Part shown: in pieces, positions 17,537 through 55,004 of the stretch
Layout: each line of letters starts with the position of its first letter
Position numbering within the stretch: position 1 is the stretch's first letter
Source of the DNA: Anas platyrhynchos
Taxonomy: Eukaryota > Chordata > Aves > Anseriformes > Anatidae
Length of the DNA: 64,000 nt
Direction: 5' to 3'
Assembly (NCBI RefSeq): GCF_047663525.1
Contig: NC_092607.1
Location: 8,651,001-8,715,000, forward strand
Notes under the pieces: model-generated
What the model was told of the DNA's origin: nothing
The model's input: only the letters and a program-made list of their open reading frames with translations
The model's database searches: none
Translations under genes and position numbers: made by a program

Positions 17537-23091
<5,555 letters not shown>

Positions 23092-24575: not shown

Positions 24576-27500
24576 CTAGCTCCTGGCCGCCTGCTCTTTA
24601 GGACTGTCCTCCTGCAGGTCCTCCTCGTCCGACTGCACCACGGGGGTCTCGGCCCCCTCCTCGCTGGTGTCCAAGCTGTTGGGATCCGTGGAGACGGACG
24701 ACGTGGAGGAGATGCGTGACTTGGTCTCGGCTGCGCTGGGCACCGGCAGGGTGATTTCCTCTGGGCACTGGCTGGCGTCTGCCCCTGGAGCAGAGAGAGG
24801 TAAGAGAAGGAAGAAAAAGGCTTCTGGAGGCTTCTTGCTCCCCGAACTTCACGGGTATCCCCACAAAAGCACCTTGCTCCTCTGCGGGCTGCACTGCCCT
24901 CCCACACGCCGCTTTCAGGTGCAGCGGGAGCCACGGGTTGGCCCTTCCCCATCTCACCCCCCCGGCTTGGCGCGAGGCCGTGCCTCGCATTCCTTCCCCA
25001 TTTTTGGCAGCGGAGCCGTTTCTGTCTCGCGTGAGGCGCGGCTCGGAGCCGTGCTGCGTGAGGCTGTCGGCAGGATGTGCAGGGAGATGTTTGGGTTGGC
25101 CTTGGTGGCTCGCTGCAGCGCCTGTGCGTGGGGTGCTGGCACCCCAGGCTTTGCTTGTGGGACCTCAGCACAGCTCTGCTGCTGGAGTATGGGAACTGGC
25201 TGGGGAGAGAAGGGCTCCTACAGCCTCCCCGCTGAGTGCAGCGAGCTCTGCAGCATGGTGGGGACCTAGAAAATAATGGCAAGACGCGGGCTGCTCTGGA
25301 GGAGCTTCAGGACAAGAGAATTTGCCCCGCAGACTCTGGGAAGTGTCTGAGCTCTCTGGTCTTCTGCAGTGAAATACATTTACAGGCTCCGTACCTCTGG
25401 GCTGTGGAGGTGGGTAGAGGCAGGGACCAGCCCATGGTGAAGTCTGGCCAGCCTCACAGTTGGCCAGACACTACGGAGCTGTCTTTGTACAGGGGGTGTG
25501 CGTGTACGCAGGCACGCTGAGCGCTGGGATGGGTGACTGACAGAGCAGGGCGGCCAGGGCTGAAGAATGAGCTGCTGGGGGGATGCTGGGGGCAGGAACA
25601 GCTCCCGTGCTGCACCACAAAGCGCTCTGGCTGCCTGTACCTGGCCCAGAACTGCTGCTCTCCTCCGTCCCGCAGCCCAGAAACACGTCCACGGTGTCCT
25701 GGTCTGTCAGGTCCATCATGTCCATCTGCTCCAGCACGTCCACATTCACCTCCATGGAGGAGATGCTGCCCAAGGGGGCTGCGGAGAGAGAGGCCAGCAA
25801 AAAGGTGAGTGCAAGGCAAAGTGCCAGGCAAAGGGCACTCGTAGCCTGTGGGGTGAGGTCTGTCTGTCCCACAGACGCCGAGCAGGACCCCAAAGTGGGA
25901 GGGCAGCCTTGCAGTGGGAAACTGAATTCCACCTGCTGGTAAGAGGTCCCCGGGAGAATCCTTTTTCCTTAAAATATCCCTCTGGAAAACCTTGCTGTTT
26001 CGCTGCGCCCCCTGCTCCTGTCCCAAGCTGCTGTCTGGAGGAGCCTGTCTCAAGCAGTAACTATGCAGGGAGCCAGCCAGGGTACAGGGCACCCAAGTTC
26101 AGTGCCTTTGGTGAAGTGGTGTGAGTAATCCGCACGTACACCCCCACGCAGCGTGTGTGGTCTTGTGTCCGTGCGGGACAGGCACGTCCCCAGCTGCCTT
26201 TAGACTGGGGACACCCAACCCCTCTCTAGCGGCTGTGCCAGTTCCCTGAAACACCCCCAGCCCCGTGCCGGTGCCCACAGCACTCACGTCTCCGGTGCTC
26301 TATCTGCAGGTGAGACACAGGGAAGAAGAAATCTACGTCGTGCTGGAAAACCTCCTCAAAGAACTTCTGCCGCTCCCGGAGCTTCAGCTGCTGCTGCTGC
26401 ATCTGCTCCGTGTCCAGGCTGCGCTGCCCCTGCTCCATGTCGGCTGGGGAGGAAGGCGAGGAGGGTCAGGCCAGGAGGGGCTGTCCGAGCCCTCCTGCCT
26501 GCCCCAGCTCACACGGTGCTGCTGTGCTGGGGCGTGGGTGATTCCCCTCTGCTCTGCTTTGCTTTTTTTTTCAGAGCACAGTGATCCAGTCACCCTGAGT
26601 GGATGTGACAGGCTGGAGTGGCAGCACCACCAGCACTTGCTGTGCCGGAGCCTCAGACCTCCCTTCTGAGATTCAGGGCAGCTAGGAGCTGGGGGACCGC
26701 GTGCTGCTTGCACTGCTGCTGAAGTAAATTATCGAGGGGGGAAAGGGTGTTGGTGTGAGGTCAGCCCCGGTTTGCACATGTTCGGAATTCATCTTTCCTG
26801 CGACAAAACAGAGGGCTGCCTGTGAACATCAACAGGCAGGGGAAACTCCCTGGAACAAGAATTGGCGTTAGTGCTCCAGACTTGCTGGGCTGAGGAATGC
26901 ATAAGGAACAAAAGGGATTAGGAACCTCGTTAGCCCTGCACATGCTCACCCCTGCTGCCACCCCTGCCGCCACCGGCGCTATAAATACAGCCGCACCCAC
27001 GCTCGCAGGCTCCCGCGCTCACATCCCCTGCTTGCACAGCCAGCTTGGCTTCTGCCTGCACAAACATTTTCATTCCTGTAATTCCTCCTGCAGTTCAGCG
27101 CCGGTGCTTGAGTCCCTGGCTCGCACGGGAACGACGGAGCCCTTGGGCAGTTGCTGAAGGAAAGCAGGAGTGAGCCTGTTGCTGCATCCCAGGAGCTGGT
27201 GCATCCCTCGGGGGCTGGGTACGCGCAGCAGGTAGGACCCAGCTGCCACGGAGGGGCCGTGGCTGGTGACCCGGGCTGTTCCCAGGCTGGTGTTTGGCCT
27301 CAGTTGTTCCACATTTCCTCTCTGCAGCTCTTGGCCCGGCCGGCACAAGGAAAATGTGATTACTGGAGCAGGCAGTGCAGTAACCAAGGGAACCAAACAA
27401 ACATCCCCTGCTTTGCCTGAGCACAGCCCAAACCTTCCACTCCTCCGAGCTAGGGAGGGAGCCGAGCAGCAGCCAGCGCTCAGCATCCCCACCCTGTCTG

Positions 27501-30500
27501 GCAGGAGCAGGGGCGAGGGCAGTGGGGGGCTGTCAGCAACATTTGGTGGGGTAGGACCACAATGGGAGAGAGGCGGCGGGCCTGGGGAGATGTCCTGGAG
27601 GTAAATATCACATCCCGAGAGCCCCTTCGGTGCTCTTCTGCCCTCTGCACCCCGTTCTCAGGGACATCCTTCAGCTGAACCCCAAAGCACGGTCCAGGAT
27701 AAGCTTTGCTTAACCAGCAGCTGATGGGTGCTGCTGCCCCCCAGCACAGGGCGCAGGGGAAGGTTTTGCCTTGCCACCTGCAGCAGGGCTCAGCCAGGGA
27801 CAAGGAGGGGCTGCACTGGGACAGGGACGGAGGTGACCAGGGCACTGATTACAGAGCTGGTGCATTGCTGCTGCTGGAGCCAGCCCTGTCCCGTCAAAGC
27901 TCTGCCCCCCAGCCCAGCTGTGCCAAATCTGTGGCAAACAGCCCACAGTTCGTCACGCTCCTCAGGGCTAAGGAGAGCTCATCGGGCTGGGCTCAGAGCG
28001 CACTGTGCCGGCTTTTTATCAGCAGGAGGACGTGACCCCTCGCCTGTCGCCTCGTCTCAGCTCAGGCTCCTGGATTCGGGGGGATGGAGCAGCTCTCTGT
28101 GCAGCCTCTTCCCAAAGGGGCCCTAATCTCAAGGTGAGGTGGAAAGTCTCCAAATTATGCAAAATAAACTAAAACACTGGCAGGTGCTGCCTGTAGTGCT
28201 GTGAGCGTGGCTGACCCTCGCCGTTCACGTTCTCACTGTCCATCCCCATCGGAAGGGCGCGATGGGGACAGTGCTGGTGGCAGCATTCCTGTGGGTGCAC
28301 GGGGAGGGCAGGCCGGGATTCCTCTTGCGGGAGAAATGAGCAGGACCTGTTTGTGAACTTGTTTGTGAGCTCTGGCCGGGGCGCTGGGCACGAGCACTGA
28401 GATGCCATTGTGGCCGTCACACCGGCAGCTGCGCCGCTGGGCTCGGCCTGAGACCCGTGACCGTGGTGAGAGTCGGGGACGGAGCCTTCCCCCTCCTCCC
28501 GGGCCTTTCCGGGCACAGGAGGAGCAAACAGCCCCGCTAGTGTGTGGCTGCTACTCAGCAACCCTGGCTGGGGACATAAAGGAGAGCGGCGTTCCCTGCC
28601 GCTGCCCTTCCCCATGTGACGGCCGGTCACGCTCCCTGCCTGTCAGCGGCGGGGATTGTCTCATCCGGCTGGCATGTTCCCACCGAGGGACACGTTCGGC
28701 CGCACAATGCGGTCCCTGTGCACCGCGGGGGATTTGTCAGTACCTGCTGGTGGCCTGCCTTTTATTACTATTGTCATGGTTATTACTCCAGCCAGCTCAG
28801 CCAAGGGGCCGGAGGCTTATCTGCATTCAGAGCCAGGCCCTCCCCGCTGGTGGCTGAACCTCCCGCGCGCCTGGGCCGGCCCCGAGCACCCCGCTGCCTG
28901 CAGATCCTTCCGGCTCTCACGGCTGGCTGGGCAGCGAGGCGCTGCCAGCTGCCCCGTCCTCATCCTCCCTGCCGTGGGAGGGAAGGGGAGCAGCTCCTGG
29001 GATGGGGCTGGCGCGGGGCGAAGCAGAACGGAGCTCGAGGGAGCAGCGGTGGAAAGGTGTTCAGGCGGCGCTCACGCTGGGAGCTGAGCGCGTTTCACTT
29101 GTCTGGCTGCGTTTCCCCGGGGAGGAGATGAGTTTTCCATTCCTCCTTGTCCCCGGGATCCCAGCACAAACCCCCCTCTGTGCTGGTGAATGGGAGGGGT
29201 GTGCTTGGGGGTGGGAGAAGCCTCGTTAGTGGAGGCACCAGGCCAAGAGGGGATGGGGACGGCCTTTTCTTCAGCCCGCAGCTCACTGATACCTCGTGGA
29301 AGTTTCAAGGCAGTTGAGTTTTGTTTTTCAGGACCTTCTTTGAAGAGGGGCGATGGCGAGGGGTGCAGATTAAATGAGAGGCTGTGCCGAGCGTGGGCTC
29401 GTTCCCTACAGAGCTGGGGCAGCCTCGCTCAGCCTCCTTTGCCCCTCTCCCTGCACTTTCCCGGAGCCAACCCCGTGTCCGTGCACCTCTGGAGCGGTCA
29501 GGGGCACCCCGCTGCCGCTGGCTGGGATGCACCTCGCGCTCCCTGCCTCTGCAAGGAGATGGGAGCAGAGCAAGAGACAGCTCCTCGGCCACCTCAGCAT
29601 CCTCTGGGACACCCCGCAGAGCTCACAAGTGTTTCCCTATCAACCCTGCCCCAGCAAAACCACGGTGGCACGAGGAAGTCCCAAGGGCTCTCGGCTCCCT
29701 CAGCCTCGGGAGAAGCAGCCGGAGGGGAGAGCTGGGAACGGCGGTGGGGAGGGGATGCCCGAGCGTGAATTCCCTGCGCGGGCCCTTCCCAAACAGCACG
29801 CCTGACCTCGTGCCACAGCCGAGCAAAAAATAACCCCGGCCCCGGTGAGAGGAAACGCAGCGGGCGAGCGCGAGGGAGGCGGTGGTTTTGGCAGAGCCAT
29901 TCGCTAGGAAAAGCAGGGGGTGAGGAGCCGGGGAGGACGCGGCACCGCACAGCCCCTGCCTGAGCAGCGGTCTCATCGCCTGCGCTCCTCCGAGCGATCT
30001 CCAAATCCCCTGCGTCTCGGCACTAAAAATATCCCTGCCGCCCAGAGCTCTTTCCCCAGCAGAGGCTGTGTCATAAGACCCTGCTATTTACGGGGCCCTG
30101 ATTCAATTCCTGCCGAAGGAGGACGGGGAACCAGGAGGGACCGGACGCAAGGCAGGGCTACGGCACCCTGTCCCCCGACACCTTGGCACTTGCTGTCGCT
30201 CTGCCCGGCCTCCTCTGACCCCAACCCTTACCGCAGGGGGGGCACCCGCTCCTCCGGGTGCTCGGGGGGGATCCGGGGGGCGCCCCAAACCCGTGGCCCA
30301 ACAGGTGCCCGAGCTCGGGCTGTCTCCGTGCAGGTGCCCCCGCAGCGCATCCCCCTCCGGGGCACGGAGCTTTCCGGGCAGCCCCTCACCGAGCAGCCGG
30401 GCTGCAGGGGGATCAGCACCGGGGCTCGGGGGCTGTGGGGCGGCGTTTTTAGGGCCAGGCTTCGAGGCGAGCAGCGCTGCGGGGCAAGGAGCACCCACGG

Positions 30501-30652
30501 GCTGCGCTGCGGGACGGGGAGACGGGGAGGGGGGGGGGGGACCGCGTTGCCAGACCTCTCCCATCCCACCCCTCCGAGCTCCCCCCGCCGTTTGGCGGCC
30601 GGTACTTACCGGGCAGCCGCCGGTTGCGGCTGCGAGCCCCGGAGCCCGACAT
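24576..30652 (-). CDS. DBNDD2: DBNDD2, dysbindin domain-containing protein 2
   Basis: Small dysbindin-family protein, known in mammals as a casein kinase 1 binding partner. Exons are 30610-30652 (first coding exon, in CpG island), 26288-26443, 25641-25778 and 24576-24784. All borders are AG/GT and the joins are in frame, giving 181 residues. A second start at 26438 (MEQGQRSLDTEQ) would give 165, close to the 161-residue human form. Family landmarks are LKLRERQKFFEEVFQHDVDF, then PLGSISSMEVNVDVLEQMD, and an acidic/serine tail with TPVVQSDEEDLQED. The residues ADM at the exon 1/2 junction match the ADM that precedes the human short start. PIGT follows downstream on the same strand, as in human. 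Which first exon dominates is not visible. Confidence 0.93.
26444..30609 (-). other. DBNDD2: DBNDD2 intron 1
   Basis: About 4.2 kb with no exon I can support. GC content rises toward the promoter side (29900-30600). Many shadow frames arise from that GC content. Confidence 0.6.
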
Positions 30653-31000
30653 GCGGCTTGTGCTGCTGCTGCCGGGCCGGCTCAGATCGGGGCCGCCGCG
30701 GCTCGCCGCTCGCCCATGCCGCGCTGCGGGGCGGTGCTGGGCGCTGCGCGGGGCGGCGCCGCCGAGCCCGGCCCCGGCGGGCGGGGACCGGCAGCGGGGA
30801 GACCCCCCCCCCCGGGACCCCCGAAATGAGGATGGGGATGCTGGGGTGAAGGGGCGAGGGGAAAAAGGGGGGCGGCGCGCAGCAGCCGGTGCTCATGGAG
30901 AGGAGAGGTCCCGGGCGGTGGGAGGGGGGGTCCGCGGTGCTGGTGCCCCCGGAGGGTCTCTGCTCCCCGGGGTGGGGTGGGGGGCACGGCTGGGCAGTGT
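29900..31000 (-). promoter_or_regulatory. DBNDD2: CpG island / promoter of DBNDD2
   Basis: Dense CG dinucleotides flank the first coding exon (ATG at 30652, donor CCCG|GTAAGT at 30610/30609). No TATA box is obvious just upstream on the minus strand. Confidence 0.6.
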
Positions 31001-32800
31001 CAGCCCCTCTGCAGCCTGCTGGCAGCCGGCCGGGGAGCTGGGGGCTCTGCCCCACGCGTGGAGCAGCCCCTGTGGCAGGGCAGGGAGCGTGCCTGTGATT
31101 CACGCTCCCTGTGCTTTGTTTTTTTTTTTGCTTTTCTTCCCCAAACGGGCAGCTGACGCAGCTCGGGCAGCTCACTCTGTGGCCGGGCCGTGGACTCCTT
31201 CCGCAGCTCTCCCTGACTTCCCTCAGCAGCACCCCCAAAATCCCCTTTTGGGGTGTTTTGCCCACTTCCAGCTGTGCTGCTCCCCGCGGGGTGACTCAGT
31301 GCCCAGCGCCAGCCCCGCTCGCATGCTGCTCCGGGCCTCTGCCTCCTTTCCTCCGGCTCCAGGGGAGTTCCCAGTGTCTGTGGCATGTCCTGCCGGCCCC
31401 TCTCAGCCTGTTTATCTCGCTGTCTGCATGGCTGGAGATAACTGGGTATTGTTTGCATCCCAGCTCTGCTTTGGCTACCGTCCCTTTGCTGTCCCCAAAT
31501 CGCCTCCTGCTGCTGAAAGCGGCTTTGAGCTGGGGACCTGCTCCCGCACCCCCTGCTCTTGCCCACGGCTGCTGGCTTCAGCTCCCCTGGGTGCCGCTGG
31601 GTGCGAGGGGCGAGCTTTGCTCACAGGACGGTGGCAGGAAGGGGGAGGCTCTCGGGGCAGCCGCCAGCCCTCCCTTGCCCCAGCTCCGAACCCTGGCACG
31701 CGTCCAGGCAGCGAGCTCCAGCATCAGCTCTCCCTGCTGCTGACCCCTCGGCCCTGCCCGGCCCTGCCGGCGGGGAGGCGAGAGGCAGGGCCAGGGAATT
31801 AGCTCAGGTCTCTGCTATGTGAGATGTCTGCGCCGATTGGCACCGCTTTCCCCGGCGAGGCATTGAGGCAGTTTCTGTGCTCGCCAGCTCCCTGCGGCTC
31901 CCCAAATCCCCACGGTGGTGACGGCACCGGCAGCGCCGAGAGACCCCGCACACGGGCACCCCGCTGCTGCATCCCCTCCGTCCCGCCGGGCGAGGAGGGG
32001 GCTGGAGAAGCTCTGATATCACCCGCACGGAGACTGACTCATCCCAGCTCTTCAGCACAAGCCGTGCTGCGCAGCGGGGCACCCATTTTAGTCCCATTAT
32101 ACGCACGCAGCCAAGCCAGCCCCACGTAATGAGTGTTGCTCCCAGCCAGGCATGCCTGCCCCCGGCCAAAAGGCAGGAGGGGACGGAGGGGACGCTGAAG
32201 GTGGTGGAGAGTCTCCACTTGTTCCCCGGGCTCCCTGCTACGAGCCTCGCCGGCCCCAGGGAGATACCTGCAGGGTCTGCCCCTACCCGCAGCAGCATCC
32301 TGCCTCGCTTGTGCCGCGGGTGCAGGCTCATGGCATTGCCGTGTGTCACCAGCACTCGCCCTCACTGCAATCCCAGGTCCCTGGGAGGTGTCCCCTGGAG
32401 ATGCGGGTCGCCAGCACAGGTAGGAAATGACACATCCTCTTTCCAGGACACAGAGCTCAGCTCCTGCCAAAGGTCCCCGGGGAAGCCAGCATCAAAGCGT
32501 GCCCGTCACCAGGAGAAAACGCAACGTGACTCGTTCCTCCTGCCGCTCCCGGTCAGGTTTCTCCCTTCGATTACAGGGCTGTAGAAAACAGGAGGTGAGT
32601 CAGGGTGCTGCGGGGCGGGAGGCGAGGATGGAGCTGCGCGGGGAGACTGCTGCTAAGGGAAAGGTGAGCTAGTGCCAGGCAGGTGAATCACTGGGAGGTG
32701 AAAATAGATCTTATTCGTTACACGCAGCGCTGGGAATGAGACGCAGCTTGACTCGCTCAGTACATTGTGGAGCAAAGAGAAAAACAAGGCTCTTTTTTTA
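31001..32800. other. Intergenic, between DBNDD2 promoter and the ataxin-1-like gene 3' end
   Basis: GC-rich unique sequence with a T run at about 31119. No family-matching exon is visible on either strand. Confidence 0.5.
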
Positions 32801-32801
32801 A

Positions 32802-33072
32802 TTTATTTTTTTTTCCTGAGGCAATGAATTGCGAGGGAGCAGCCTGCGAAACTCCAGCGACCGAGTTCCCGAGGCTCCCTTAAAAGGGGAGATTTGAGTC
32901 CAGGACAGCGGGGAGACAGCAAAGCCATAAACACCCTGGGAGGAATGTGGCTGCTGAGAAACGAGCATCCCCGCAGCGCGGGGGCCAGCTCGGCGGGGGG
33001 AGAGGGGCTGCACCGCCCGGCCCTGCAGGATCCTTGCCCGAGCCCCCCGGGGGCACGCGGTGGCCACCAGGG
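32802..33072 (-). terminator. 3'UTR and poly(A) signal of the ataxin-1-like gene
   Basis: The stop codon at 33073-33075 is followed on the minus strand by about 265 bases and then AATAAA at 32807-32802 (TTTATT on plus), flanked by an A/T-rich patch. This supports a complete short last exon ending near 32785. Confidence 0.55.
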
Positions 33073-35136
33073 CTAGCGGTCCCCAGGAGGCTCTCGCTGA
33101 GCCCCGTGGGTGTCGTGTCCCTGCCTCCTGGGGCTCCACACCATGCAGATGTCCCCGACGGCCAGCTGCTGGCACGGGAGCTGGTAGAGCTGGCAGGTCC
33201 TGTGCGGGCAGCAGGACACCCAGCCCCGGTGCCGGGCGAAGAAGGGGAACTCCTGGAGCACCTCCACGGAGACCTGGGCAGGGTGAGGAGAGGGCCTGCA
33301 TCAGGAGCAGCCCCAATGCCACCAGCACCCCCTGCTTGCCCCACAGCTGAAGGGCAGCCTCCTGAGGCTGCGAGGCTCCCCAAGCTGCCCTCCACAAACC
33401 CCGCAGCCCCAGCACACCCCACAGCTCCTTCTTTCCACCCCACAACAGGAGAGGTGACCAAGGCCATGCAGCAGCTTGGTGGTGGAGCTGGAGTTCACCC
33501 GTTTCAGCCCTCCCTGGCCTCTGACCCTCTCCTCTGTAGGGCCGGGGCCAGCCTGGCATTAAGGAAAGCCACCGATTCCAGGGTTAGGGTGCCAGGGCTG
33601 GCTGGTCCTGCTCTGCCTGCGCGCTCTCAGCTCTCTGGGGCTGATGCTTGGAAAGGCCCCCTAAGGATGAGGCTGGGGACATGTAGGTGGCACCAGGCAG
33701 CCTGGCCTGCCTCTCCCCGTGCCCCCACTCCCTCCACGCAGACAGGACGGAGCCTTGCCCGCTTCCCTGCACCTGGCAGCCCTCACTGCCAGCCCCCGGA
33801 GGCGCAGAGCTTTTGGGGAAAAATATTCGCAAAGCCCAGGCGGCTCCTTTGGGTGATGAGCACAGGGAATGGCCCTATGAGTTTGGGGACGTGGGGATCC
33901 CCGTCCCAGGGGACAGCCCCTCACCTGCCTGTCCTGCTCCTCGAGGCAGACCCGCAGGGAGGCGAAGCCAGCGTGCGAGCTCCTCTGGATGCCCCGCACC
34001 ACGCACGAGCTGATGCACAGCTCGCTGCCGGCCACCGCGCACCGCAGGAAATCCTCCTCCCGCAGCTCCTCCACCTTCCTCTGCTCGCCGCCGGGCAGCA
34101 GCGCCAGGGAGCCCCTCTGGAAGTGGGGCAGCACCACGGGTGTGCTGGCGATGGGCAGCAGCATGGCCCAGAGCCCCCCGGTGCCGGCTGGGTTTTGGCA
34201 CCGCCGGTACGAGACCGCGGGGCAGAGCGGCCGGGAGTAGAGCAACGCGTGGGATGGTGCCGTGGGGGGCAGCCCTGGGGTGGTGGGAATATGGGCAGAC
34301 AGTGGGGTGGGTGTCATGGGGACAGTCCCCGAGCCAGTGGGGGGCTGCTCCTCGCCTGTCCCCTGCGGGGAAGCCGCCCTGGGAGGGGGCTGCAGAGGGG
34401 CAGCGCTGGTGGAAGGTGGAGGTGAGGGGTTGGGGGACTCCGAGGGGTTTGGGGTGTTGGGGGGGACGCTGGCATCGTGCAGGCTGGCAGCTGCCCTGCT
34501 CGGCTCGCCCGTGCCCACTGCCAGTCCGTAATACAGCCGTGCCCTGGGGACACTGCCTGTGGGCAATGGGGTTACCGAGGGGAGCCCCCCGCCCGGCTCT
34601 GTGCCCCCAGCTGGTGCCACCGGGCTGGCAGCAGACCAGAGCCCTGGCAGGGCCCCCACCGTCCCCATCCCCATGTCCTGCCTGTCCCCGTGCTGCCCGC
34701 TCGGGGACATCCAGGCTGGGGCGTGCAGGCAGCTCCTGGCCCCGGGACAGCCTCGGGGGGGGCCCCAGCCCCTTCCGCAGGCGGTGGCGATGCCCAGGGG
34801 CTGCGGGCAGCCCCCTGCTGCCCCATCAGCCGTGCCCATCATGGAACCAGGGTCCCTCCTGTGCCCAGGGGGGGCGCATCGTGCCCACGGCTGCTGGGTG
34901 CCCGCAGGAGCCACCGGCCTCATGCTGGGTGGATGCTGGGGCGAGGGGCAGGCAGCCCTGGGCCCCCCCGGCAGCACCCAGGCTCCTGGAGCTGCTGTGG
35001 AGCCCCAGGGCCTGGGGCTGCCCGGGGCCGGCAGCGCCTTCCTCGCCGTCATCTCCCTCTTCTTCGGGGGCAGGCTGAGCCCCCCCGTGACGGTCCTGCT
35101 TTCGGCACCCTCCGGCAGCTCCGATTCTTGGGGCAT
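33073..35136 (-). CDS. Ataxin-1-family protein with AXH domain (third paralogue beside ATXN1 and ATXN1L)
   Basis: Two coding exons, 33925-35136 and 33073-33273, join at CAG|GTGAGG and CCCAG|GTC with no phase break to give 470 residues. Residues 22-28 are LPPKKRE, the motif near the start of ATXN1 (CLPPKKREI). The middle (30-320) is proline-rich and of low complexity, without a glutamine tract. Residues about 331-452 form an AXH domain: LPHFQRGSLALLPGGEQRKV, VEELREEDFLRC, then after the intron VSVEVLQEFPFF, GWVSCCPHRTCQLYQLPC and LAVGDICMVWS, aligning throughout with the ATXN1 domain. The protein stops soon after, so the ATXN1 C-terminal nuclear signal and 14-3-3 site (RKRRWSAPE) are missing. 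AXH mediates dimerisation and binding of the repressor Capicua and RNA in the family; the same role is inferred. Likely acceptor upstream of the ATG at 35149/35148. Expression is not proven, but an AATAAA follows the stop. Confidence 0.88.
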
Positions 35137-38100
35137 TTTGTGGGGCTGCTGCGGGCAGGTCCCGGAGGCACCGCGTCACCCGTGGGGCTTGGAGAGCTGG
35201 AGCATCTAGGAGAGCACCAGGAGCGGGGTTACGGGGCTGGGAAGTGGCACAGATCCGGGAGGCTGGCAGTAATCCCCTGCTGGGGACATCGGTCACATAG
35301 CAGGGGAGCATCAGGCCCTGGGGCTGGGCTGGGCTGGCTCCGTCCCCATCTCACCGTGACAGCTCAGGGCTCCCGTGGGGGGCTTGGGGAGGGGTGGCAG
35401 GGGGCAAGGGAAGCCCCTCGTAGGGCTTGGGGCCGATGTGACCCCTAGAGGGTCAGGCAGCGGCACCGGGAGGCAGAACAGATGCAAGAGCAAGGCTGAG
35501 CCCCTTTGAAGCTGGGCTGGAGCTGCCAAAAAGCAGCAGGTTCAGCTGGTGCTGAGTGATTTCTCTGATTTTCTGAATGCCAGCCGCAGCCCCACAGCCC
35601 CGCCACCCCCACGGCTCTCCCCTTGCGCTCGGCTCCCAGCCCTGGCTGGCTGCCCACGCCGGGGAAACCACCCCGGCTCCTTTTACTTTCACGGGGGCTA
35701 CACAAGCAGCAAGGGTTAGTGACAGAGCCCGGCCACTCAGGGGTGCTCTTTTCTGCCATAATCATGATTTTTTTAATTTAATTTTATTTTTTTCCCTGCA
35801 CAACACCAGCTTTAAAACTCAGCTGGCTTAACAGAAATGCAGCACAGCTGGCCCCAGGCGGGTGACATCTCCGAGCTGGACGTGCCTGCGGCAGCCCCCA
35901 GCCAGCACCAGGTGGGTGCTGTGCCCTCCACAGCTGCTCTGCACGGCTGCAGGGTGAGGGCACGGCCTGGCCAGGGGCTGCGAGGGGGTTGGGGGGAGCA
36001 GGATCTCTGCCCTGGTGCCTGGGACCAGTCCCATTAGCTTGGAGCAGAGCTGTGCCAGAGCACCGTGAGGGCTGGGCAAAATGGGAAGGGGTCTGCGACC
36101 TCCCTGCTGTCTGTGGGGTTGGGGGAGGACAGGAGCTTGGCAGGGACAGCCACCCTGGGTGCCCAGATGGGTGCAAAACCACACACACCCCCCAAACCAG
36201 GCGATGCTCCCTCACCCTCCTGCTCACCTCAGCACGGCGCTGCCGAGCTCCAGGCTCTCCCCCAAAGCACTTTGCTCCCCCAAACAGCTCGGACACCCCA
36301 TCACCTCCTGCCTGGAGCCCCCCGCTCCCCATTCCCTGCCCCAAACCAGAGCCCCCCGCCTTGGCCAGGAGCCGGAGCAGCCCTTACCTGCTGGGGGGAG
36401 CCAAGTGGGAGCCAGAGGGTGCACGAGCCGCCCTGTCTGCCGGGGCACGGGGGCGCACTGCGTGCGGCGGAGAAGGTCACCACGGGCCGCGTGGGAGGCT
36501 GCCTCGTGCAGCGCTCCTGCTCTCACCGCCTCCTCCCGAGGCAGCCAAGGAGGGGACGTGGGACCCTCCAGGTATGGGTTGTGGGGCTGTGACCCCCCCG
36601 AGCTGAGCCCTCAGGGTGGGAAAGGGGCTGGGGATGGAGGTGGATGGGGATGCTGGTGGGCTGCACCCGCGGCATGGTGACCCCGTGGATGCTGCCATGT
36701 GAGGACCCTTGGGGAGAGGAGGTGGCCCCGGGGACTCCTGCAAACAGCCCGTGGAGCTGGTGCTGCACCAGGGCTGGGCATCCCAGGGTGTGTCCTCGTT
36801 CCCAAAACCATCCCAGCAGCTCGGGGTCCCGACACCCACCCGGGCCCTGCTCAGCCGGCAGGGAAAGTGGGAGGAGGAGCAGCCGAAACAGCCTCCTCCA
36901 GCAGTGACATTTAAGCCACCTTCTCTGTCGCTGTGTTGTGGTTACACACGGCTGGGTGAAAACACCTTCCCCGGCCTGGCAAGGCGCTGCTCACACTCAT
37001 CTGGGTACTGAGAGCCGGGGACGGCGGCGGGGAAGCACGCGGAGATGCTGATTTTGGGTGGGCGGCAGGGCCGGGGGGAAGCAGGGCTCGCCGTGGGTGC
37101 CTGCCCCGTCACCGCAGTGGGGTCAGGCAGCCCCAGCCCCAAGGAGCTGAGGGCACCGTGGGGCTGGGAGGGATGCTCGCAGCCAGGATTGCAGAGGAGG
37201 ATCGCTGTGCAAGGTAGGGACAGCTGCTTGCTTCTGCCCTGCTGCTTCCCACCAGCCTCTTGGTCCCTGCACGGCTCGGTTTTCCCCCTCTCTAGGCAGG
37301 AGGGGAGGAAGGGAGAGCTTCAAATGGGAAGATGCCATCGGGGATTGAAGTGCGTGAAGCGTGCACGCGTGCTCACGTATGGACACAAACGCGATGAGGT
37401 CTCAGTTCAGCCACAACAAGGTTTTATAGCTCACCCCCCCACAAGGCAGCCTCCAAAGCTGCTGGTGGCAGTGGTTTTGTGCTCTCCTTGGCAGGTCTCC
37501 GGGTGCACTGGGCTCAGCTCCTCGCCTGAATGAAGCCCGTGGTGGTGCAGCCGTGTCCTGCTGCACACAAAACAGTGGGGCACAGGTAAATGTGGGCAAA
37601 TCTCCCCCAGCGCTGTACCCGGACTGCTGGCATTGGCCCTACTCAGGTTCTCTTGCTTTGGGATGACGGGGGAAGGAACGGGATGACCCTCCACCTGCAG
37701 ACCTGGCCCTGTGCCCCGTCCCTTCTGCCCTTTGGAGCTGCTCCATGCACCCGCGCTGTCCCCAGGATCTGCTCGAGGACATCCACGGGCAGGTTGGCAG
37801 CTCCCCTGTCCCCACCCCGGTGTCCCGGGCTGTCCCTGCCCAATTGCCTGGGCCCAGCTGGAGCAGGGGGGTCCTGCAGCTTTCCCATACCCCATGAAGG
37901 GAAGGGGAGCCCCACTCCCAGCCACGTCTTGAGCTGTGTCACCCGAGCTGACTCCCCATTAAGCTGTGTCCCCCATTATAGGATTGTCCCCGGTCCCCTT
38001 TGTGCAGCTGGGCGCTGAGACTGGGGCTCTGGTGTCACAGAGGCGTGAGGTCACAGCCCTTGTCCTCGCTGCCACCACCAGCTCCAAGCACAACCCAGCC

Positions 38101-38458
38101 CTCGTCCCCCACTGCCGCTGCCCCAGCAACTCACCCTGCGGCCCTACACTGCCATCCGAAAAAGGAGCCAGCTGCCCCACAGGAGGTACAGCCCCCCGGC
38201 ACGGCACTGTGCCCCCCCCGGCCACCATCGTGGGGACATTCCTGGGCAATGCCATGGGCTGGGAGAAGCCCCTGCTGGGTTACCCAAATTACGCACCTCT
38301 GCCTTGTGGGGACAGGTCCCCGCGTCCCCAGGGAGTGCAAGCCTGCGGTGCTGCTTGCCGGGACGAGCTCGATACCACCCCATCCCTAACCCCAGTCCTA
38401 ACCCTAACCCCTAGCCCTAACCCTAACCTTGTCTTGTCCTTGACTTTCCCTCTCCCAG
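35137..38458. other. Region between the divergent ataxin-1-like gene and TP53TG5
   Basis: It should hold the untranslated first exons and promoters of both genes. I cannot place them. GC-rich with CpG clusters around 36300-37150. A poly-T/A patch lies at 35767-35790. A + frame at 37966-38610 is open over 200 codons but resembles no family I know. Confidence 0.45.
38383..38429 (+). repeat. Interstitial telomere-like (CCCTAA) repeat
   Basis: About seven imperfect CCCTAAC units (CCCTAACCCCAGTCCTAACC, then CCTAACCCCTAGCCCTAACC, then CTAACC) lie 30 bases upstream of the TP53TG5 coding exon. The motif is that of vertebrate telomeres. The array is short and degenerate. Confidence 0.85.
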
Positions 38459-38467
38459 GCTGGAGAC

Positions 38468-39463
38468 ATGGGGGACCAGCCCCGTCCACTGGGCAGCAGG
38501 GATCCAAAAAGCCACCTCCGCAAGGTGAGGGTCCCTGCGGCGGGGCTGCGTGGGGGGCTGCGGTGCTCGGAGGGGTGCTCACCCTGCCCGCCCCGCTCCG
38601 CAGGTGCTGAAGGAGCTGTCGCTGCTCAGGCTGCTGAAGCGCACGAACCGCAGGATCCTGCGGCTGCACGCCGTGGCCGTGCAGTGCTGGCACTCGCTGG
38701 CGGCACAGGGGCTGCCCGGCCTCCTGCCGCTCCCTCCCAGGTAGGTCGGGGGGCAAAGGGGGCCCCGCGCCCCCAGCCCTGCTTGGCTGCCACGCGAAGG
38801 CACAGATTTGGAGGGGTGAGGAAGAGCTAAAGGGGGATGAACTGCGGGGATGCGAATCAGGGGTGGGTTTGGGGTGGGCGGGGAGGGTGCTGGATTCAGC
38901 CATACCGGAGGTCTGGGCTCAGGGCCAGCCTGGGGTGCACCAAAACACCCCGCTCCCTGCACCCCATGGGCACTGCAGCCCGTGGTGGCCCGGCACAGGC
39001 ACTTCCCTGTGCTCCAGAGCCTCTCCCTCTGTGCTCCGTCCCTGCGGGCTGTTTGATGGGACCGCGCTGAGCCATGCCCTGGGGCTGTCTGGGCTGCCCA
39101 GGGCAGGACAAACGCGCCCTTCTTCTTCTTGGATTTGGGCGCAGGATGTGCCACCTCACACCAAAGCCACAGGAGGTCACGGAGGAGGCCGTTGGCAGCC
39201 CAGCAACCAACACCACCAGCAGCAAGGATGTGCCCATGGACCCCGAGACGGGGACCCCGCCAGGGGATCCCCAGCCGCTCGCCAAGGACCAGGGGGCTGG
39301 CGAGGCCAAGAAGGACTTGCTGGGGACCCTGCCCCAGCGCTTCCACTTGCCGGCCCCCAAAGTGCTCTGCCGGCCGTCGGCCCAGCGCTGGGTCAAACCC
39401 TGCTGCACCCGCTCCTGCAGCGAGAGCCTGGAGCACACGCTCACCATCCGCTACCCGCAGTGA
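38468..39463 (+). CDS. TP53TG5: TP53TG5-like protein (TP53 target 5)
   Basis: Exons 38468-38524, 38604-38740 and 39145-39463 join in frame to a 170-residue basic protein; human TP53TG5 is about 290. Two blocks match the human protein. The first is VLKELSLLRLLKRTNRRILR with a following CWHSLA (human VLKNLSLLKLLKSSNRRIQE, CWHSLL). The second is RFHLPAPKVLCRPSAQRWVK with a following CCTRSCSESLE (human RIHLPAPRVMCRSSTLRWVK, RCTRFCSASLE). The middle is shorter and Pro/Lys/Glu-rich. The human gene is a p53-induced, testis-rich gene of unclear function. It stands opposite in strand to DBNDD2 and SYS1 and between them, exactly as in human. The first exon has an acceptor CCCAG at 38454-38458, so an upstream non-coding exon is likely. 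AATAAA lies at 39685-39690. Confidence 0.85.
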
Positions 39464-39684
39464 GGGCGAGGCGCCGCTGCCATCGGTACGAACCCCAAGG
39501 TGCAGCATGCCCTGCTGGCTGGGCAGGAGTCTTTCCACCTCGGGGACCCCTGTTAAGGCCCAGCTCGTTAGCAAGGTGGTTGTGCTGCTGGCTTTCCTTC
39601 CAGGGCTGCCGGAGGTTCGGGGCTGGGAGGAGCAGGAGGTGAGCTCCCGAGAGGAGATCTGTGGGGTGAGCCCTTGTGCTGTGA

Positions 39685-39690
39685 ATAAAG
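39685..39690 (+). terminator. TP53TG5: TP53TG5 polyadenylation signal
   Basis: AATAAA 222 bases after the TP53TG5 stop codon, followed by a GT-rich segment (TTGTGTTTGGTTTGG) at about 39733. Confidence 0.7.
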
Positions 39691-41032
39691 GGAGTGAGCT
39701 GCATCTCCCTGACCCAGACTTTCTGCCCGGGAGTTGTGTTTGGTTTGGCGTCCCGCCGTGTTTGCCGCTTGGTGGGTTCCACTTTGGATTCGAGGGGATG
39801 GAGACGTCGGGGGTGATGCCTGCGTGCAGAGGGGCTGGAAATCTTTCCTCCGTGCACCCCATCACCAGGCACCTGGAAAAGCAATGCCCCTGCTGGGCTC
39901 AGGGACCAGCAGTCCCCAGGATGCCTGGCTGGGGTCAGGAGCCTCACACAGTCAGAGGTAGCAGCTGCAGGGCTCTGCTCCCCTGGGTTTCCTTCTGGGG
40001 AGCACGGCAGCATTTTCCCACCAGCCTCGCAGGTCAAAGCCCAGCTATCCCCATCTCTCCAGCCTGGAGAAGGAGAGAAAATCCTCACCCATCTCCTGTG
40101 CGAGGAGGTGGTGGGCTGATCCTCCGGCAGGATCAATGGAGGGGCAGAGCTGCCACCGGGCTGTGAGCTGGGACGTGCCCAGGCCCCAGAGCGGTGTCAC
40201 CAAAGCAGCCAGGAAACTGCTGCCACTGGGGTAAAGAAAAGCCACTCACTGGCCAGGAGCCAGGGCAGGGCTGTAAGGATGCAAACAGCCGCACGATCCC
40301 CTCCAGGACATTGCCGAGATGGGAACTGCCGGTGCCAGGATCAGCAGAGAAAACTTTATAGCTGCAGGGGCCGAAATTTCGGGCTTTGAACCCACACGCA
40401 CTCAGGTCTCTGTTTAACGTTTGGCCTTGCGAAATTACAAGGGGCTGCCCGGATTGCGGCTGCTGCAGGGCGGCGGCGACCTCCTCATGCCCTGGGGCCG
40501 AGAACTGGGAGCTGCAGCCCCGGGGGACACGGGGCAAGGGGGGATTTTGGGGACTGCCTCGGCAGCGAGGGGGGCGAGCCCAGCAGGGAGCACCCGGAGC
40601 GCACGGGGCGGGGGCGCGGAGAGCGGCTGGGGAGGGATGGAGAGAGGGGAGGAGAGAAGGATGGAGGGATGGAGGGAAGGAGGGGACGGGTTTCGGGATC
40701 CGGGAAAGGGGCAGGGCGACCCCAGCCGGGGGCTGTGCGGAACCAGCCGGGGGAGGTCCGAAAGGGCCGGGCTGGGGGCTGGGGGATGCCTCCCCCCCCC
40801 CCAGGCTCTGCCCCGGCAGCCGCGCAGATCCGGGGGGCGCTGCCCTAGGGGTGCGCCGAGGAGCCGGGCTGCCCCCCCTCCAGGTGCTCATTAGCGGCGG
40901 TCCGGCCCCCTCATTAATTACCCGTGGTCAAAGCCGCTAATTAGCTGCGGCCGGAGCTGGGGCGGGGAGCGCTGGCGGCCATGGGGGGCACCGGCACGGG
41001 ATTAAGATTAGGATTAGGATTGGGGTTGCGGG
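39691..41032. other. Intergenic and promoter region of the neuritin-like gene
   Basis: Unique sequence, then CpG-rich from about 40400 with a GA-rich simple repeat at 40625-40690 (GGATGGAG words). Just before the neuritin-like ATG there are tandem GGATTA words (41000-41020). No TATA box is obvious. Confidence 0.5.
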
Positions 41033-44000
41033 ATGGGGCAGCGGCGGGGCACGGCCGTGCTGCTCGTCCTGCTCATCGCCCTGGGTAAGGCTGCGACCCC
41101 CGGCGGGTGGTGGGGGCTGCCCCGGCTGGGGTGCGGGTGCTGGAGCCGGGGAGGTGCTGCCCGGGCTGGGTTTGGGGGCTCTGGGCAGGGGCAGGGTCCC
41201 GTGCTGGTGTGTGGGGGGATGCTGGTGGGGGTCCCCTGCCTCTTCTCCGTGTCGTTGCCCTGTGGCTTTTCTCTGGGGGCTCCTCGCTGGCTGCACCCCC
41301 CTATTCCTGTCCTCAGCTTGAGCAGGGCAGGCAGAGAGGGAGGCACCCAGGCTGCCCCCCACATCATTTCTCTGAGCACCCCCTAAAACAGGCAGGACTG
41401 GGAAACAAGCGATGGGTGTGTGGTTTGCATGCCCCCCGCTCAGAAAGGGGAGCTTGCCCTGCCCTGGTGGCCCCAGGAGGGAGGTGGGCACCGTCCCCAA
41501 AGGTCTCTGAGCTCGCTCTGTCCCCTCGGGGGCTGGCAGGGCACCGGGCGCTGGGCACGGCATGCACAGATGTCTACCGAGGCTTCTCGGACTGCGTCCT
41601 GAAACTGGGGGAGAACATGGCCACGTACAAGGAGGAGGAGAGCATCGAGCCCCAGGGGCTGCACCGGGTCTGTGGGTGAGTACGGCCCCGTGCCGGGACC
41701 CCCTGTGTGTTCCACCCTCTGGGGATGGTCTCTGGGGGGGTGGGATGGGGCCCTGGACCCTCATGGGCTCTCCAGCAGCGCTGGGAGGGCAGGGGCTGGG
41801 TGACTGGGGGCACACATCCAGCACCCCTCCGTGCTGCTGTGGGCCTGGATCCCTCCGTGCAAGCACCCTGCTGCCCTCCGACCCCAAACATGGGGAGAGC
41901 TCCCTGCTTCCATCCACCTCCGGGCAGAGTCTGCATCCCCAGCCCTTAAAAATAGCTCCAGCCCCCAGGACTTGTGCCGTGACCCCCCTGCAGGTGTGGG
42001 GCTGGCAGGGCTTGACCTGGATCCCCAAGTGTTTGGATGGAGGTGCCAGGACCTGGCTGCGGGAGGCAGGCTGCCCCCAGCTAGGTGCTGCAGCCCCAGG
42101 CGGGCTCGCTGCCTCCCTCCCTTCCCAACCCATCATCTTTCGGGCTGGAATTGCCACCTGCCCCTGGTATTTTGCATGACTGCAGTGCTGGGAGGGCGTT
42201 AACTGTAGGAGACCCAGAATAGTAATGAAAGAGGTAAAAGAACCGAGAATTAGCTACCCTCAGTGCTTTCATTTCTAATTATTCGCTTTGGGAATGTGTT
42301 CCCCTGACAGAAACCCTGCTGATGGGGAGCTGGCTGTGTCCTGCTCCTCCTTGCTTCCCTCTCCTCCAGACCACCTAGCTTAGGATGAAATGCCTCCCTG
42401 GGATGCAGTGGGAGAGGGGGCTGAAATGAGAACTGCTTTTCCTAGGCTGTGGTGTGAGCGGCTCCTTGGTATCAGAAAGCAGCCGTGTGTGGGGCTCAGC
42501 ATGTGCTTGGGGGGCTGCCGGAGGCGTGATCGCTCTCTGCTGAAACTCACAGCATGAAATGAAGTGTAAGAGGTTTTCAAGAGGCTCTGGGGCACTAAAT
42601 AGGAAAGAACAGGACCTGGGAATTGGGGCTTGGGATGGGACCTTCCTGGACAAGCCGACTCCTTGCGCTGGTCCTGGTGGGCAGGTGGCGGTGCGTGGCA
42701 AGCTGGGCTTGCTGCGGCTGGAGGAAAAAGCTGATGTCCCATTATCCTGCCGGGAAATATTTCTGAATGACGGCCTTTAACCCCTACCCTCCTCAGCTGC
42801 TGTCTGCCCGCCCATGGAAGGCACCGTGCTCCCCTCCCCGGGATCGTGGGTCGGGAATGGGGATGAGAGGTGTCAGTGGTGTCGGCACCTCGGCTCTGCG
42901 TGCGCGGTACTTCCCTGCCTGACCACAACCTGAACAGATGGAGGCTGTGAAGGGTGAAGGACCAGGGACTGTGAATCCTGCTGAAAGCAGAAGGAGGCTG
43001 GAGCTGCTTCCCCCAGCCACATTTTGCCCAAATATTTAAGCCAGGCTAAACCCTCTCCTGGCAGAGCTGCCCGGGGCAGCGGCAGCAGCTCGGGAGCGAA
43101 CACGAGGGGTTGCCTGGGTTGGCACTGGGCTCTCATTATCTCAGGATATTTATTCTGCCACAGTGACTCTGTTTAATGAACTCGATCACAGCTGGCATTT
43201 TGACGTAAGCCTGGTAAGAAAACTAAATAAAGGAAGTGCTCCTGCCTGCCTGGACGAAGGTGTCATCTCCGGCACGGGGTCCCAGATAAGAAGGAGATCT
43301 GGGAAAGGAGAAAGCCCGGAGAGGTCTGGGCAGAAGCAGTGGGGTCAGGCCTGCAGGCTGCTGGCACCCGCTGCACCTTTTCTAGACCCGTGCCTATTTT
43401 GTGTTTCTGTTTCTGGAGCTCCTCAGAAGTCTCTTGCCATTGAACGGCTTCTGTTTGTGCAGGACAATACTGAGATAAGTAGAGGTGTCTAATGAGAACA
43501 CAACTCCCCAGCCTCTGCTGATGTGTTATTTATAAATCCGTGAGAGGCTGCAGGAGCCGTTGTTCCCCTCTCCGTGCCTGTGTTTTGCCCTGCGTCAGCC
43601 TGAAGGAAGCCCTAAATGAAGTGTGCTGGGCCTTTGACCGCGGTTTCAGATGCTCAGGGTGCTCAGTGCTGAAAGGAAACACGTTGAAAAATAATGGGTT
43701 TTACTGACTTGCAAGGGAAAAAAATAATGTCAGTGATGTTTGGAATTTTAGCCAGGATGCTCTGAGGGACTGCGGAGGGGATGGGTGATGGTGTGGGGAA
43801 GGAGGGAAGCAGTGAAGGGCTGTAGGGCCAGGCTCCTCGCGTGGCTCCTGCCCAGCTGTGGGGTGAGAACAGCTCCACAACTTGGTCAGAGATCCTGAGG
43901 CTGCAGCTTGCAGGGCCGGCACCGGGCAGCGAGGCTCTGCCTGGCTCCTGGGCCTCACCACACAGAGGGACTGACGGCGATGTCTCCGGGCTGCAGGTAC

Positions 44001-44237
44001 TGGGATGAATTTCACATCTGTGCCCTGACCGTGCTCTGGGAGTGCCAGAAGGAAGCAGCGGCTGTCTGGGAGATGCTGAGGAGGGAGTCCCAGAAGGTCA
44101 AGTTTCGAGGCAGTTTGTTTGACCTCTGCAGCCCCAGCACGGCCCAGAGCTCTGCCTGGACCCAGGTTCCCAAACTTTCTGTCCTCGGCATCCCCCTCAT
44201 CGTCACTTGGCTGAACTCAGGACCCGCAGCTCTGTAA
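41033..44237 (+). CDS. Neuritin-family GPI-anchored protein (third paralogue beside NRN1 and NRN1L)
   Basis: Exons 41033-41084, 41540-41675 and 43997-44237 join in frame (G|GG, GG|G) to 142 residues, exactly the length of NRN1. The parts in order are a signal peptide (MGQRRGTAVLLVLLIALG and on to about 25), the core and a hydrophobic C-terminus (LSVLGIPLIVTWL) of the kind removed on GPI attachment. The core contains GFSDCVLKLGENMATY, YWDEFHICALTVLWECQKEA, VWEMLRRESQ and GSLFDLC, against human NRN1 [46 protein letters not shown] and GSLFELC. All six family cysteines are kept. By family, a secreted or surface factor that promotes neurite growth and synapse stability; that role here is inferred. 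It is closer to NRN1 than to NRN1L by eye. Neighbours are TP53TG5 upstream and SYS1 convergent. Confidence 0.88.
41676..43996 (+). other. Second intron of the neuritin-like gene
   Basis: About 2.3 kb with no other exon seen. It ends in CTGCAG at 43991-43996. Confidence 0.7.
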
Positions 44238-48989: not shown

Positions 48990-50258
48990 TTATACGTTGG
49001 ATTTGGGAGCAGAATTCAGTGGGATTTCTCTGAGTTCTATCCTCATGCAGAGGTACTCCCCAATCGCAGCCATGAGCGCTGTGCACACGATGTGCACCAG
49101 CCACCACGTCAGAGTTGAGGGAAAGTGCGAGTTATAAATCCAGCAGCCCAGAAGATGGAAGAAGTGAACGGTGACTGTGAAATCCAGGCACTGCTTTCCT
49201 CTTCGGATGAAGTACAGCAACCCCAGAGCACTGCAAAGTAAAGACAGATGAATAAACATCATGCTGCACTGTGCCCGTGGAAAAGGGGATATGGCAAGAT
49301 CTAGTAGGAATTGTTGGTGCTAGTTATCAAGACGTTTTAGGACTTCTTAACTGTTTTAAGGATAGGTTGTTCTTCACATTGCTCACGGACGCTGTAGCAA
49401 GATTTAAATGGCTTACAGCACTTTAATTATATGACAGCAGGCAAATGAGTTTTTAGTTTAAGAATTCCTGCCTGGCTCTCTGTGCTATCTCCCCCAGTAA
49501 TCTCTGCCTAGTGGCAGGCACAAAGTACAGTACAGCTTACAGACCAGTGTTTGCTGAGACTCATTAATTCTAACGTTCAGTAAAATCTCTCACGGGACCA
49601 AGACTCATTTTTGGAGTGGGAAACTGAGGCAGTAAAGTGAGATGACTTATCGGGGATCAGGACAAGTCACCTTCAGAGCCAGCGGCTCCCAGCTGGCCTC
49701 CTCTCCAGACCAGAGGCACGGGGAATAACCTGACCTCAAGGGACGTGCACTGGGCTTCCAGGAGGTGTGAGAGCGGCGGTGGCCACGCTGAATTCTCACA
49801 GAGCTCAATGTTATGAAGGAGTAAGCACAAGACACGGGGACTGCTGGCGTAACGGGCGCGCTACGCCTGCCCCAGTGCCTCGCTGACTTACCAGGTGAGC
49901 GCGTTGAGGATGAAAGCCATCATGGAGAGCCTCCCGGGCGGGGTTGAGAAGCCTAAAATCTGCACAGCATCGTTAGTAAGAGACCACAGCGCCCACCGCA
50001 GCCAGCCTCACCCCACGGGCACTGCCCCGCGCCCGCTACGCCCCGTACGGTTCCCCCCGAGGTGGGGGTGTGGGGACGGGACAGCCCCTTCCTCACCTCG
50101 TCGCTGAAGACCTGGTGCAGGGAGGGCCGGGTGCTGCCCAGGGCGCCGAGGAGGGCGAGCCAGAGGCCGAGCGAGCTGTAGTAGGCGGCCTGCAGCAGCA
50201 CCATCTGCGCCACGATCAGCGCCGGGTCCCACACGTAGCTGCGGAACTGCGCCGCCAT
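48990..50258 (-). CDS. SYS1: SYS1 Golgi trafficking protein
   Basis: Four-pass Golgi membrane protein that recruits the small GTPase ARFRP1. Exons 50097-50258, 49892-49959 and 48990-49230 join in frame to 156 residues, the human length. The start MAAQFRSYVWDPALIVAQMV matches human MAGQFRSYVWDPLLILSQIV. The last exon (ALGLLYFIRRGKQCLDFTVT, and the end EIPLNSAPKSNV) is nearly identical. Hydrophobic segments lie at about 14-42, 66-87, 93-115 and 117-137. The start lies in a CpG island. It is oriented as in human relative to SDC4 (head to head) and TP53TG5. Confidence 0.97.
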
Positions 50259-54999: not shown

Positions 55000-55004
55000 G
55001 TGTG

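What the first reader, a model, noticed from the sequence alone, without database searches (positions are those of the whole stretch)
24576..44237. Third copy of a dysbindin-ataxin-neuritin linkage group
Human 6p carries DTNBP1, ATXN1 and NRN1. Human 16q carries DBNDD1, ATXN1L and NRN1L. This window carries DBNDD2, an AXH gene and a neuritin within 20 kb. Three families repeating together in three places is what whole-genome duplication leaves. Mammals then kept only DBNDD2 at this locus (20q13). This explains both unnamed genes at once and predicts remnants or losses at the fourth site.
Basis: partly seen in the sequence, partly recalled or inferred. Interest (0 to 1): 0.88.

Follow-up and report, generated by a model that had tools for sequence, protein, structure and literature searches.

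The report
Third ataxin–neuritin–dysbindin gene set
A duck chromosome keeps a third copy of a small gene neighbourhood (a dysbindin, an ataxin-1 and a neuritin relative) whose other two copies lie on two other duck chromosomes, as the ancient vertebrate genome doublings would leave; two of its three genes appear to be missing from mammals.

Summary
The window (duck; contig C21) holds DBNDD2, an ataxin-1-type AXH gene and a neuritin, within PIGT–DBNDD2–AXH–TP53TG5–NRN–SYS1–SDC4. Genome-wide family searches found each family at three duck loci, one each on C2, C12 and C21: NRN1/NRN1L/window, ATXN1/ATXN1L/window, plus HBP1 on C1, DTNBP1/DBNDD1/DBNDD2. Two more families, picked beforehand from recalled human positions, fit too: ETO/NHR2 and large MAF. 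The AXH gene has duck ATXN1's intron at the identical site and phase, so it is no retrocopy. The third neuritin occurs in sauropsids, coelacanth, gar and teleosts; none of 72 named hits is mammal or frog. Chromosome-scale 1R/2R duplication explains this best. Limits: the AXH copy cannot be dated by tree (young copy of ATXN1 not rejected); neuritin trees disfavour but do not formally exclude a late origin; no fourth copy was seen; the neighbour SDC4 follows another chromosome set. Mammalian loss and gene order outside the duck were not tested directly.

The parts
24576..26438 (-). DBNDD2 (exons 26438-26288, 25778-25641, 24784-24576; 165 aa), dysbindin-family member of the block
   Evidence: Gene model; Pfam PF04440 1.2e-45; duck paralogs DTNBP1 at C2:107.464-107.469 Mb and DBNDD1 at C12:1.324 Mb (names given from recalled protein features and order)
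33073..35136 (-). Third ataxin-1-family (AXH) gene: exon 1 35136-33925, exon 2 33273-33073, 470 aa; ends shortly after the AXH domain
   Evidence: Pfam PF08517 8.2e-28; human ATXN1 AXH 117 bits vs HBP1 30 bits; intron site and phase as duck ATXN1; second bird-like copy P0084
33274..33924 (-). Phase-0 intron inside the AXH domain (GTGAGG...CCCAG), at the same site as the duck ATXN1 intron (Gln|Val-Ser-Val-Glu-Val)
35053..35073 (-). N-terminal LPPKKRE motif; duck ATXN1L has it too; the human ATXN1 and ATXN1L versions are recalled
38468..39463 (+). TP53TG5 homolog (exons 38468-38524, 38604-38740, 39145-39463), between the AXH and neuritin genes; not shown to be part of the duplicated set
   Evidence: Pfam PF15331 1.5e-20; splice sites
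41033..44237 (+). Third neuritin gene (exons 41033-41084, 41540-41675, 43997-44237; 142 aa): signal-peptide-like start, six-cysteine domain, hydrophobic C-terminal tail
   Evidence: Pfam PF15056 1.8e-40; 99% to P0001, Anas platyrhynchos XP_027328990.1 neuritin-like; six Cys columns invariant in 20 rows; hydropathy of both ends
17540..17926 (-). PIGT C-terminal coding exon (flank anchor)
   Evidence: Pfam Gpi16 5.3e-23
49956..50459 (-). SYS1 first part (flank anchor)
   Evidence: Pfam SYS1 6.1e-9

Best explanation
The window carries the third surviving copy of one proto-vertebrate chromosome segment. The early vertebrate genome doublings (1R/2R) multiplied a chromosome that held one dysbindin, one ataxin-1-type AXH and one neuritin gene. 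Today's copies lie on duck C2 (DTNBP1, ATXN1, NRN1), C12 (DBNDD1, ATXN1L, NRN1L) and C21 (DBNDD2, the AXH gene, the third neuritin). SHOWN here: the gene models, the distribution of the three families over the same three contigs, two more families with the same distribution, a neuritin type shared with bony fish, and the ATXN1 intron in the AXH gene. INFERRED: that the event was whole-genome duplication, and that mammals lost the AXH and neuritin copies while keeping DBNDD2 and TP53TG5 between PIGT and SYS1 (human order recalled). Likely products (inferred from family): a secreted, GPI-anchored neuritin-type neurite/synapse factor; and a short, fast-evolving nuclear co-repressor that keeps the N-terminal motif and the AXH (Capicua-binding) domain but lacks the C-terminus that duck ATXN1 and ATXN1L share.
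For: Distribution: neuritin C2/C12/C21; AXH C2/C12/C21 plus HBP1 on C1; dysbindin C2/C12/C21; ETO/NHR2 C2/C12/C21; bZIP_Maf: the three best of 14 matches are C12, C21, C2, with frames of 439-601 aa, the C21 copy 0.48 Mb from the window. 72 of 82 hits carry a name: 46 birds, 14 squamates, 5 turtles, 2 crocodilians, 1 coelacanth, 1 gar, 3 teleosts. AXH intron identical to duck ATXN1 in site and phase. Both neuritin introns have the same phase in the window gene and in duck NRN1 and NRN1L (first exons of the latter two not read). Frame kept in P0084: 11 indels over 398 aligned residues, about 6e-6 if a third of neutral indels keep frame (P0084 is in the database because it is an open frame, so this overstates). 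In chicken and guineafowl the same neuritin carries the TP53TG5 name (P0020, P0026), which fits the same neighbourhood.
Against: The AXH trees do not reject a young copy of ATXN1 (AU p=0.187). The neuritin trees do not formally reject birds-with-NRN1 (p=0.111) or birds-with-NRN1L (p=0.056), nor a split of the third type into a fish and a sauropsid part (p 0.39-0.40). No AXH copy outside P0083 and P0084 was found. In one search the next three matches (C15, C19, C1) score nearly as high as the C2 one (110-113 vs 113 bits); calling them small MAFs rests on their short frames (145-176 aa) and recall. The neighbour SDC4 has its paralogs on C2, C3 and C24, not C12. No fourth copy. On C2 and C12 neuritin lies more than 11 Mb from the other two families. 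The two extra families were picked because their human positions were recalled to fit, so they test a prediction and are not a random sample.
Confidence: 0.87

Rival explanations
1. The neuritin and DBNDD2 copies are 2R relics, but the AXH gene is a later DNA-level copy of ATXN1 that landed beside them in the reptile or bird line and then evolved fast.
For: A placement beside duck ATXN1 is not rejected (AU p=0.187); it shares the ATXN1 intron; only P0083 and P0084 were found as relatives of this type; ATXN1 itself is 98% identical between duck and human in the AXH domain, so trees have little power here.
Against: It would have to land by chance within 20 kb of the third neuritin and DBNDD2, on the one contig where the paralogy pattern calls for a third copy. 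It is only 43% identical to duck ATXN1.
Confidence: 0.1
2. The three sets arose by separate segmental duplications or translocations, not by whole-genome doubling.
For: The immediate neighbour SDC4 follows another chromosome set, and linkage on C2 and C12 is loose.
Against: Five families give the same three contigs over spans of many megabases (C2 1.4-107 Mb, C12 0.3-12 Mb, C21 5.6-8.7 Mb), which is chromosome-scale. A mixed neighbourhood is expected where two proto-chromosomes fused between the two doublings, as Simakov et al. describe in general (PMC7269912, passages).
Confidence: 0.05
3. The AXH reading frame is a chance open frame or a pseudogene in GC-rich DNA.
For: Exon 1 is 73% GC, and long stop-free frames are common in this window (195 of at least 120 aa). 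No named protein record matched the AXH gene.
Against: Domain score, splice sites, intron site shared with ATXN1, and P0084 with the start region and frame kept.
Confidence: 0.04

Closest known systems
ATXN1 and ATXN1L (ataxin-1 family)
   Same: AXH domain (43% and 41% identical to the duck copies), N-terminal LPPKKRE motif as in duck ATXN1L, two coding exons as reported for human and zebrafish ATXN1 (PMC8583371, passages), intron at the identical site as duck ATXN1.
   Different: 470 aa; lacks the C-terminus that duck ATXN1 and ATXN1L share (its motifs were not found in any frame of the window). At the two positions whose mutation disrupts Capicua binding (Val591, Ser602; PMC12730705, passage) it has Val and Cys. 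It evolves fast: 64% AXH identity to P0084, against 98% (ATXN1) and 94% (ATXN1L, human row recalled) between duck and human.
NRN1 and NRN1L (neuritin family)
   Same: Six cysteines, same intron phases, hydrophobic ends.
   Different: A separate group; 52% to duck NRN1 and 49% to duck NRN1L in the domain. Database records call it neuritin-like, neuritin, neuritin 1, or (chicken, guineafowl) TP53TG5.
2R ohnolog sets with copies lost in one lineage
   Same: Several families repeat once each on the same chromosomes.
   Different: Three copies seen, not four; the neighbour SDC4 belongs to another chromosome set.

Membership tests
Neuritin family | NRN1 domain with six conserved cysteines | tested here: met
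   PF15056 1.8e-40; six Cys columns in all 20 rows aligned
Neuritin family | Intron phases of the neuritin genes (second intron just before the YWDEFH / SWDDFH stretch) | tested here: met
   Window, duck NRN1 and NRN1L exons 2 and 3; first exons of NRN1 and NRN1L not read
Neuritin family | Secreted, GPI-anchored product | not testable with these tools
   Hydrophobic N- and C-terminal stretches only
ATXN1 family | AXH domain closer to ATXN1/ATXN1L than to HBP1 | tested here: met
   56/131 and 51/125 identical vs 18/80 to duck HBP1; 117 vs 30 bits in the PDB search
ATXN1 family | ATXN1 intron inside the AXH domain | tested here: met
   Same site, phase 0; duck ATXN1L has no intron there, duck HBP1 has one elsewhere
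ATXN1 family | Conserved C-terminal region (one of three conserved regions named in PMC8583371) | tested here: not met
   Present in duck ATXN1 and ATXN1L, not found in any frame of the window. The gene is filed by descent (a paralog), not as a full-length ataxin-1 protein
ATXN1 family | Binds Capicua through AXH | not testable with these tools
   Val591 position kept, Ser602 position Cys (alignment; residue numbers from PMC12730705, placed by their 11-residue spacing)
Dysbindin family | Dysbindin domain | tested here: met
   PF04440 1.2e-45. First exon boundary near profile position 48-49 as in duck DTNBP1; the last window exon is not listed there, so the second boundary was not compared
2R paralogon | Several families with one member on each of the same chromosomes | tested here: met
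   5 of the 6 families whose genome search was answered, three being the finding itself and two preselected; the sixth, syndecan, has C2, C3, C21, C24
2R paralogon | Paralog splits predate the bony-vertebrate ancestor | tested here: inconclusive
   Neuritin: third type present in gar, teleosts and coelacanth and the best tree agrees, late-origin trees not all rejected; AXH not datable; dysbindin aligned but no tree
2R paralogon | Fourth copy or its remnant | tested here: inconclusive
   No fourth neuritin, dysbindin, ETO or ATXN1-like match in the 42 duck contigs; counts are lower bounds and the assembly may be incomplete
2R paralogon | Conserved order around the locus in gar, coelacanth, frog, turtle, platypus | not testable with these tools
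   The genome search holds prokaryotes and the window's own genome only (tool description; one search says it has no relatives here)

The most novel reading that the evidence does not exclude
Sauropsids keep a working third ataxin-1, a short protein with the N-terminal motif and AXH domain but without the C-terminal tail, which modulates Capicua repression apart from the splicing-factor and 14-3-3 arm of ATXN1; mammals, including the species that gets SCA1, lost it together with a third neuritin.
Probability: 0.35. Interest if true: 0.72.

Novelty: new member of a known kind. Interest (0 to 1): 0.57.

Why it matters
A review seen here speaks of one ATXN1 paralog, ATXN1L (PMC10676324, passages), and the neuritins I know of in human are NRN1 and NRN1L (recalled). 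A third member of each, side by side with DBNDD2, completes a three-way set on three chromosomes, gives the neuritin-like bird and reptile records a proper place, and offers a natural truncated ataxin-1 for separating Capicua binding from the other ataxin-1 functions. SDC4 beside the block also suggests that two proto-vertebrate linkage groups meet here.

Tried and rejected
Retrocopy origin: rejected for AXH and neuritin by conserved introns. HBP1 relationship: rejected. Recent copy from ATXN1L: rejected (AU p=0.0095, SH p=0.059). Placement of the AXH gene with ATXN1 (AU p=0.81), outside both (0.48) or with ATXN1L (0.33) cannot be told apart. Recent copy from NRN1 or NRN1L: disfavoured by about 10 log units but not formally rejected. 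A first AU test with only the two recalled human references gave birds-with-NRN1 p=0.049, birds-with-NRN1L p=0.244 and the third type as one clade p=0.565.

Led nowhere: the AlphaFold model of the neuritin (mean pLDDT 67) and its PDB fold search (no match at E<=0.001); PDB sequence search with the neuritin (best E 0.27); papers for the chromosome set (passages, 50, 51); the zebrafish atxn1/axh paper PMC2722686 is not held. One AXH tree run timed out and printed nothing. In one search, 6 of 10 window stretches had no Pfam match.

Novelty searches (PMC library, listings only): 1 paper; 0; 0; 3; 15 of 166 listed; 2 of 4 listed; 15 of 66 listed. I saw no title or abstract start on a third ATXN1-family or neuritin gene at this locus; the unlisted papers were not seen. 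Papers read in passages: PMC8583371, PMC10676324, PMC6814966, PMC12730705, PMC7269912, PMC6193309, PMC3560075. None was read whole.
Full report
What is in the window. The neuritin query is 99% identical to a protein recorded for Anas platyrhynchos, so the window is from a duck; in the held genome it is contig C21:8651001-8715000. Between 24576 and 44237 lie DBNDD2 (-), an AXH gene (-), a TP53TG5 homolog (+) and a neuritin (+), each with a Pfam match and consensus splice sites. Of ten flanking stretches sent to Pfam four matched: a Src-type kinase (the name SRC is recalled), BLCAP, PIGT and SYS1. SDC4 lies just outside (motifs; Syndecan match). The order PIGT–DBNDD2–TP53TG5–SYS1–SDC4 is that of human 20q13.12 (recalled); the AXH and neuritin genes are extra.

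The AXH gene. The reading frame starts at 35136, 21 residues before an LPPKKRE motif also found near the start of duck ATXN1L. The phase-0 intron falls between Gln and Val-Ser-Val-Glu-Val, exactly as in duck ATXN1; duck ATXN1L reads through AXH to its C-terminus in one exon and duck HBP1 has an intron elsewhere. Identity in AXH is 43% to duck ATXN1, 41% to duck ATXN1L and 22% to duck HBP1. The protein stops soon after AXH; motifs of the C-terminus that duck ATXN1 and ATXN1L share were not found in any frame of the window. P0084 keeps the start region and the frame: 221 of 398 aligned residues identical, 11 indels. Human and duck ATXN1 AXH are 98% identical and ATXN1L 94% (human ATXN1L recalled), against 64% between window and P0084: the third copy evolves much faster, which is why trees cannot date it. 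A FastTree run put it outside ATXN1 and ATXN1L, next to the long HBP1 branch (support 0.65).

The neuritin. 82 proteins matched: 46 named birds, 14 squamates, 5 turtles, 2 crocodilians, coelacanth, gar, 3 teleosts and 10 without a name; no named mammal or amphibian, although fish, which are further away, were found. The list comes from 200 candidates sharing words with the query, so absence is suggestive only. The monophyletic third type is the best tree; splitting it at its base costs 0.9 log units (not rejected); moving the birds alone to NRN1 or NRN1L costs about 10 (AU p=0.111 and 0.056); joining the duck's three copies is rejected (p=0.001). In domain identity the duck third copy is nearer to coelacanth (66%) and gar (57%) than to duck NRN1 (52%) or NRN1L (49%).

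The linkage test. Whole-genome family searches, run exon by exon, placed the members as follows. Neuritin: C2:89.54, C12:11.92, C21:8.69 Mb. AXH: C2:107.16, C12:0.30, C21:8.68 Mb and HBP1 on C1 (of the window gene only exon 2 is listed). Dysbindin: C2:107.46, C12:1.32, C21:8.68 Mb. Two families were then chosen because I recalled their human positions as fitting. ETO/NHR2 gave C2:25.4 (two neighbouring matches), C12:1.7 and C21:5.6 Mb and no other place. bZIP_Maf gave 14 matches; the three best, with long frames, are C12:5.9, C21:8.17 and C2:1.4 Mb and are taken as the large MAFs, while the next three, nearly as high in score but with short frames, lie on C15, C19 and C1 (large and small MAF told apart by frame length and recall). 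A family chosen as a contrast, syndecan (SDC4 is next door), gave C24, C3, C2 and C21, as I expected from recalled positions (a weak extra match on C3). So 5 of the 6 families that were answered share C2/C12/C21, and the sixth suggests that another ancestral linkage group is interleaved here. Simakov et al. describe fusions between the two doublings in general terms (PMC7269912, passages); the passages seen do not name this chromosome set.

Reading. Chromosome-scale paralogy of five families, a neuritin type shared by ray-finned and lobe-finned vertebrates, and conserved introns make 1R/2R the best account; confidence 0.87. The weakest link is the date of the AXH copy. Mammalian loss is inferred from the hit list, from a review that names one ATXN1 paralog (PMC10676324, passages) and from recalled human gene content. 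A fourth site was not seen in the duck assembly.

Function. The neuritin product should be a secreted, GPI-anchored neuritin-type factor (hydrophobic ends, six cysteines). The AXH product may still bind Capicua: of the two AXH positions whose mutation disrupts that contact (PMC12730705, passage) one is kept (Val) and one is Cys. Without the C-terminal tail it should lack the ATXN1 nuclear signal (PMC8583371, passage) and the motifs described for splicing-factor and 14-3-3 binding (PMC10676324, passages). These are inferences, not tests.

Noticed in passing
window 38468-39463 (+): TP53TG5 homolog in a bird; in chicken and guineafowl, records of the adjacent neuritin carry the TP53TG5 name (P0020, P0026), which looks like a read-through or mis-joined gene model.
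   Followed up: partly
L008 6696-8080 (C21 about 8.7217-8.7231 Mb): SDC4, next to SYS1, has its paralogs on C2, C3 and C24, unlike the block beside it (C2/C12): two ancestral linkage groups seem interleaved at this place.
   Followed up: partly
window 54900-55900: Long stretch with extreme strand skew (GC skew -0.39, AT skew -0.35 in 54001-56000) that gives long low-complexity open frames on both strands, just before a signal-peptide-like start that may be SDC4 exon 1.
   Followed up: no
L020 (C2:107.154-107.157 Mb) and L018 (C12:0.301-0.304 Mb): Duck ATXN1 keeps the intron inside AXH while duck ATXN1L reads through AXH in one exon, so ATXN1L (or its ancestor) may have lost it.
   Followed up: partly
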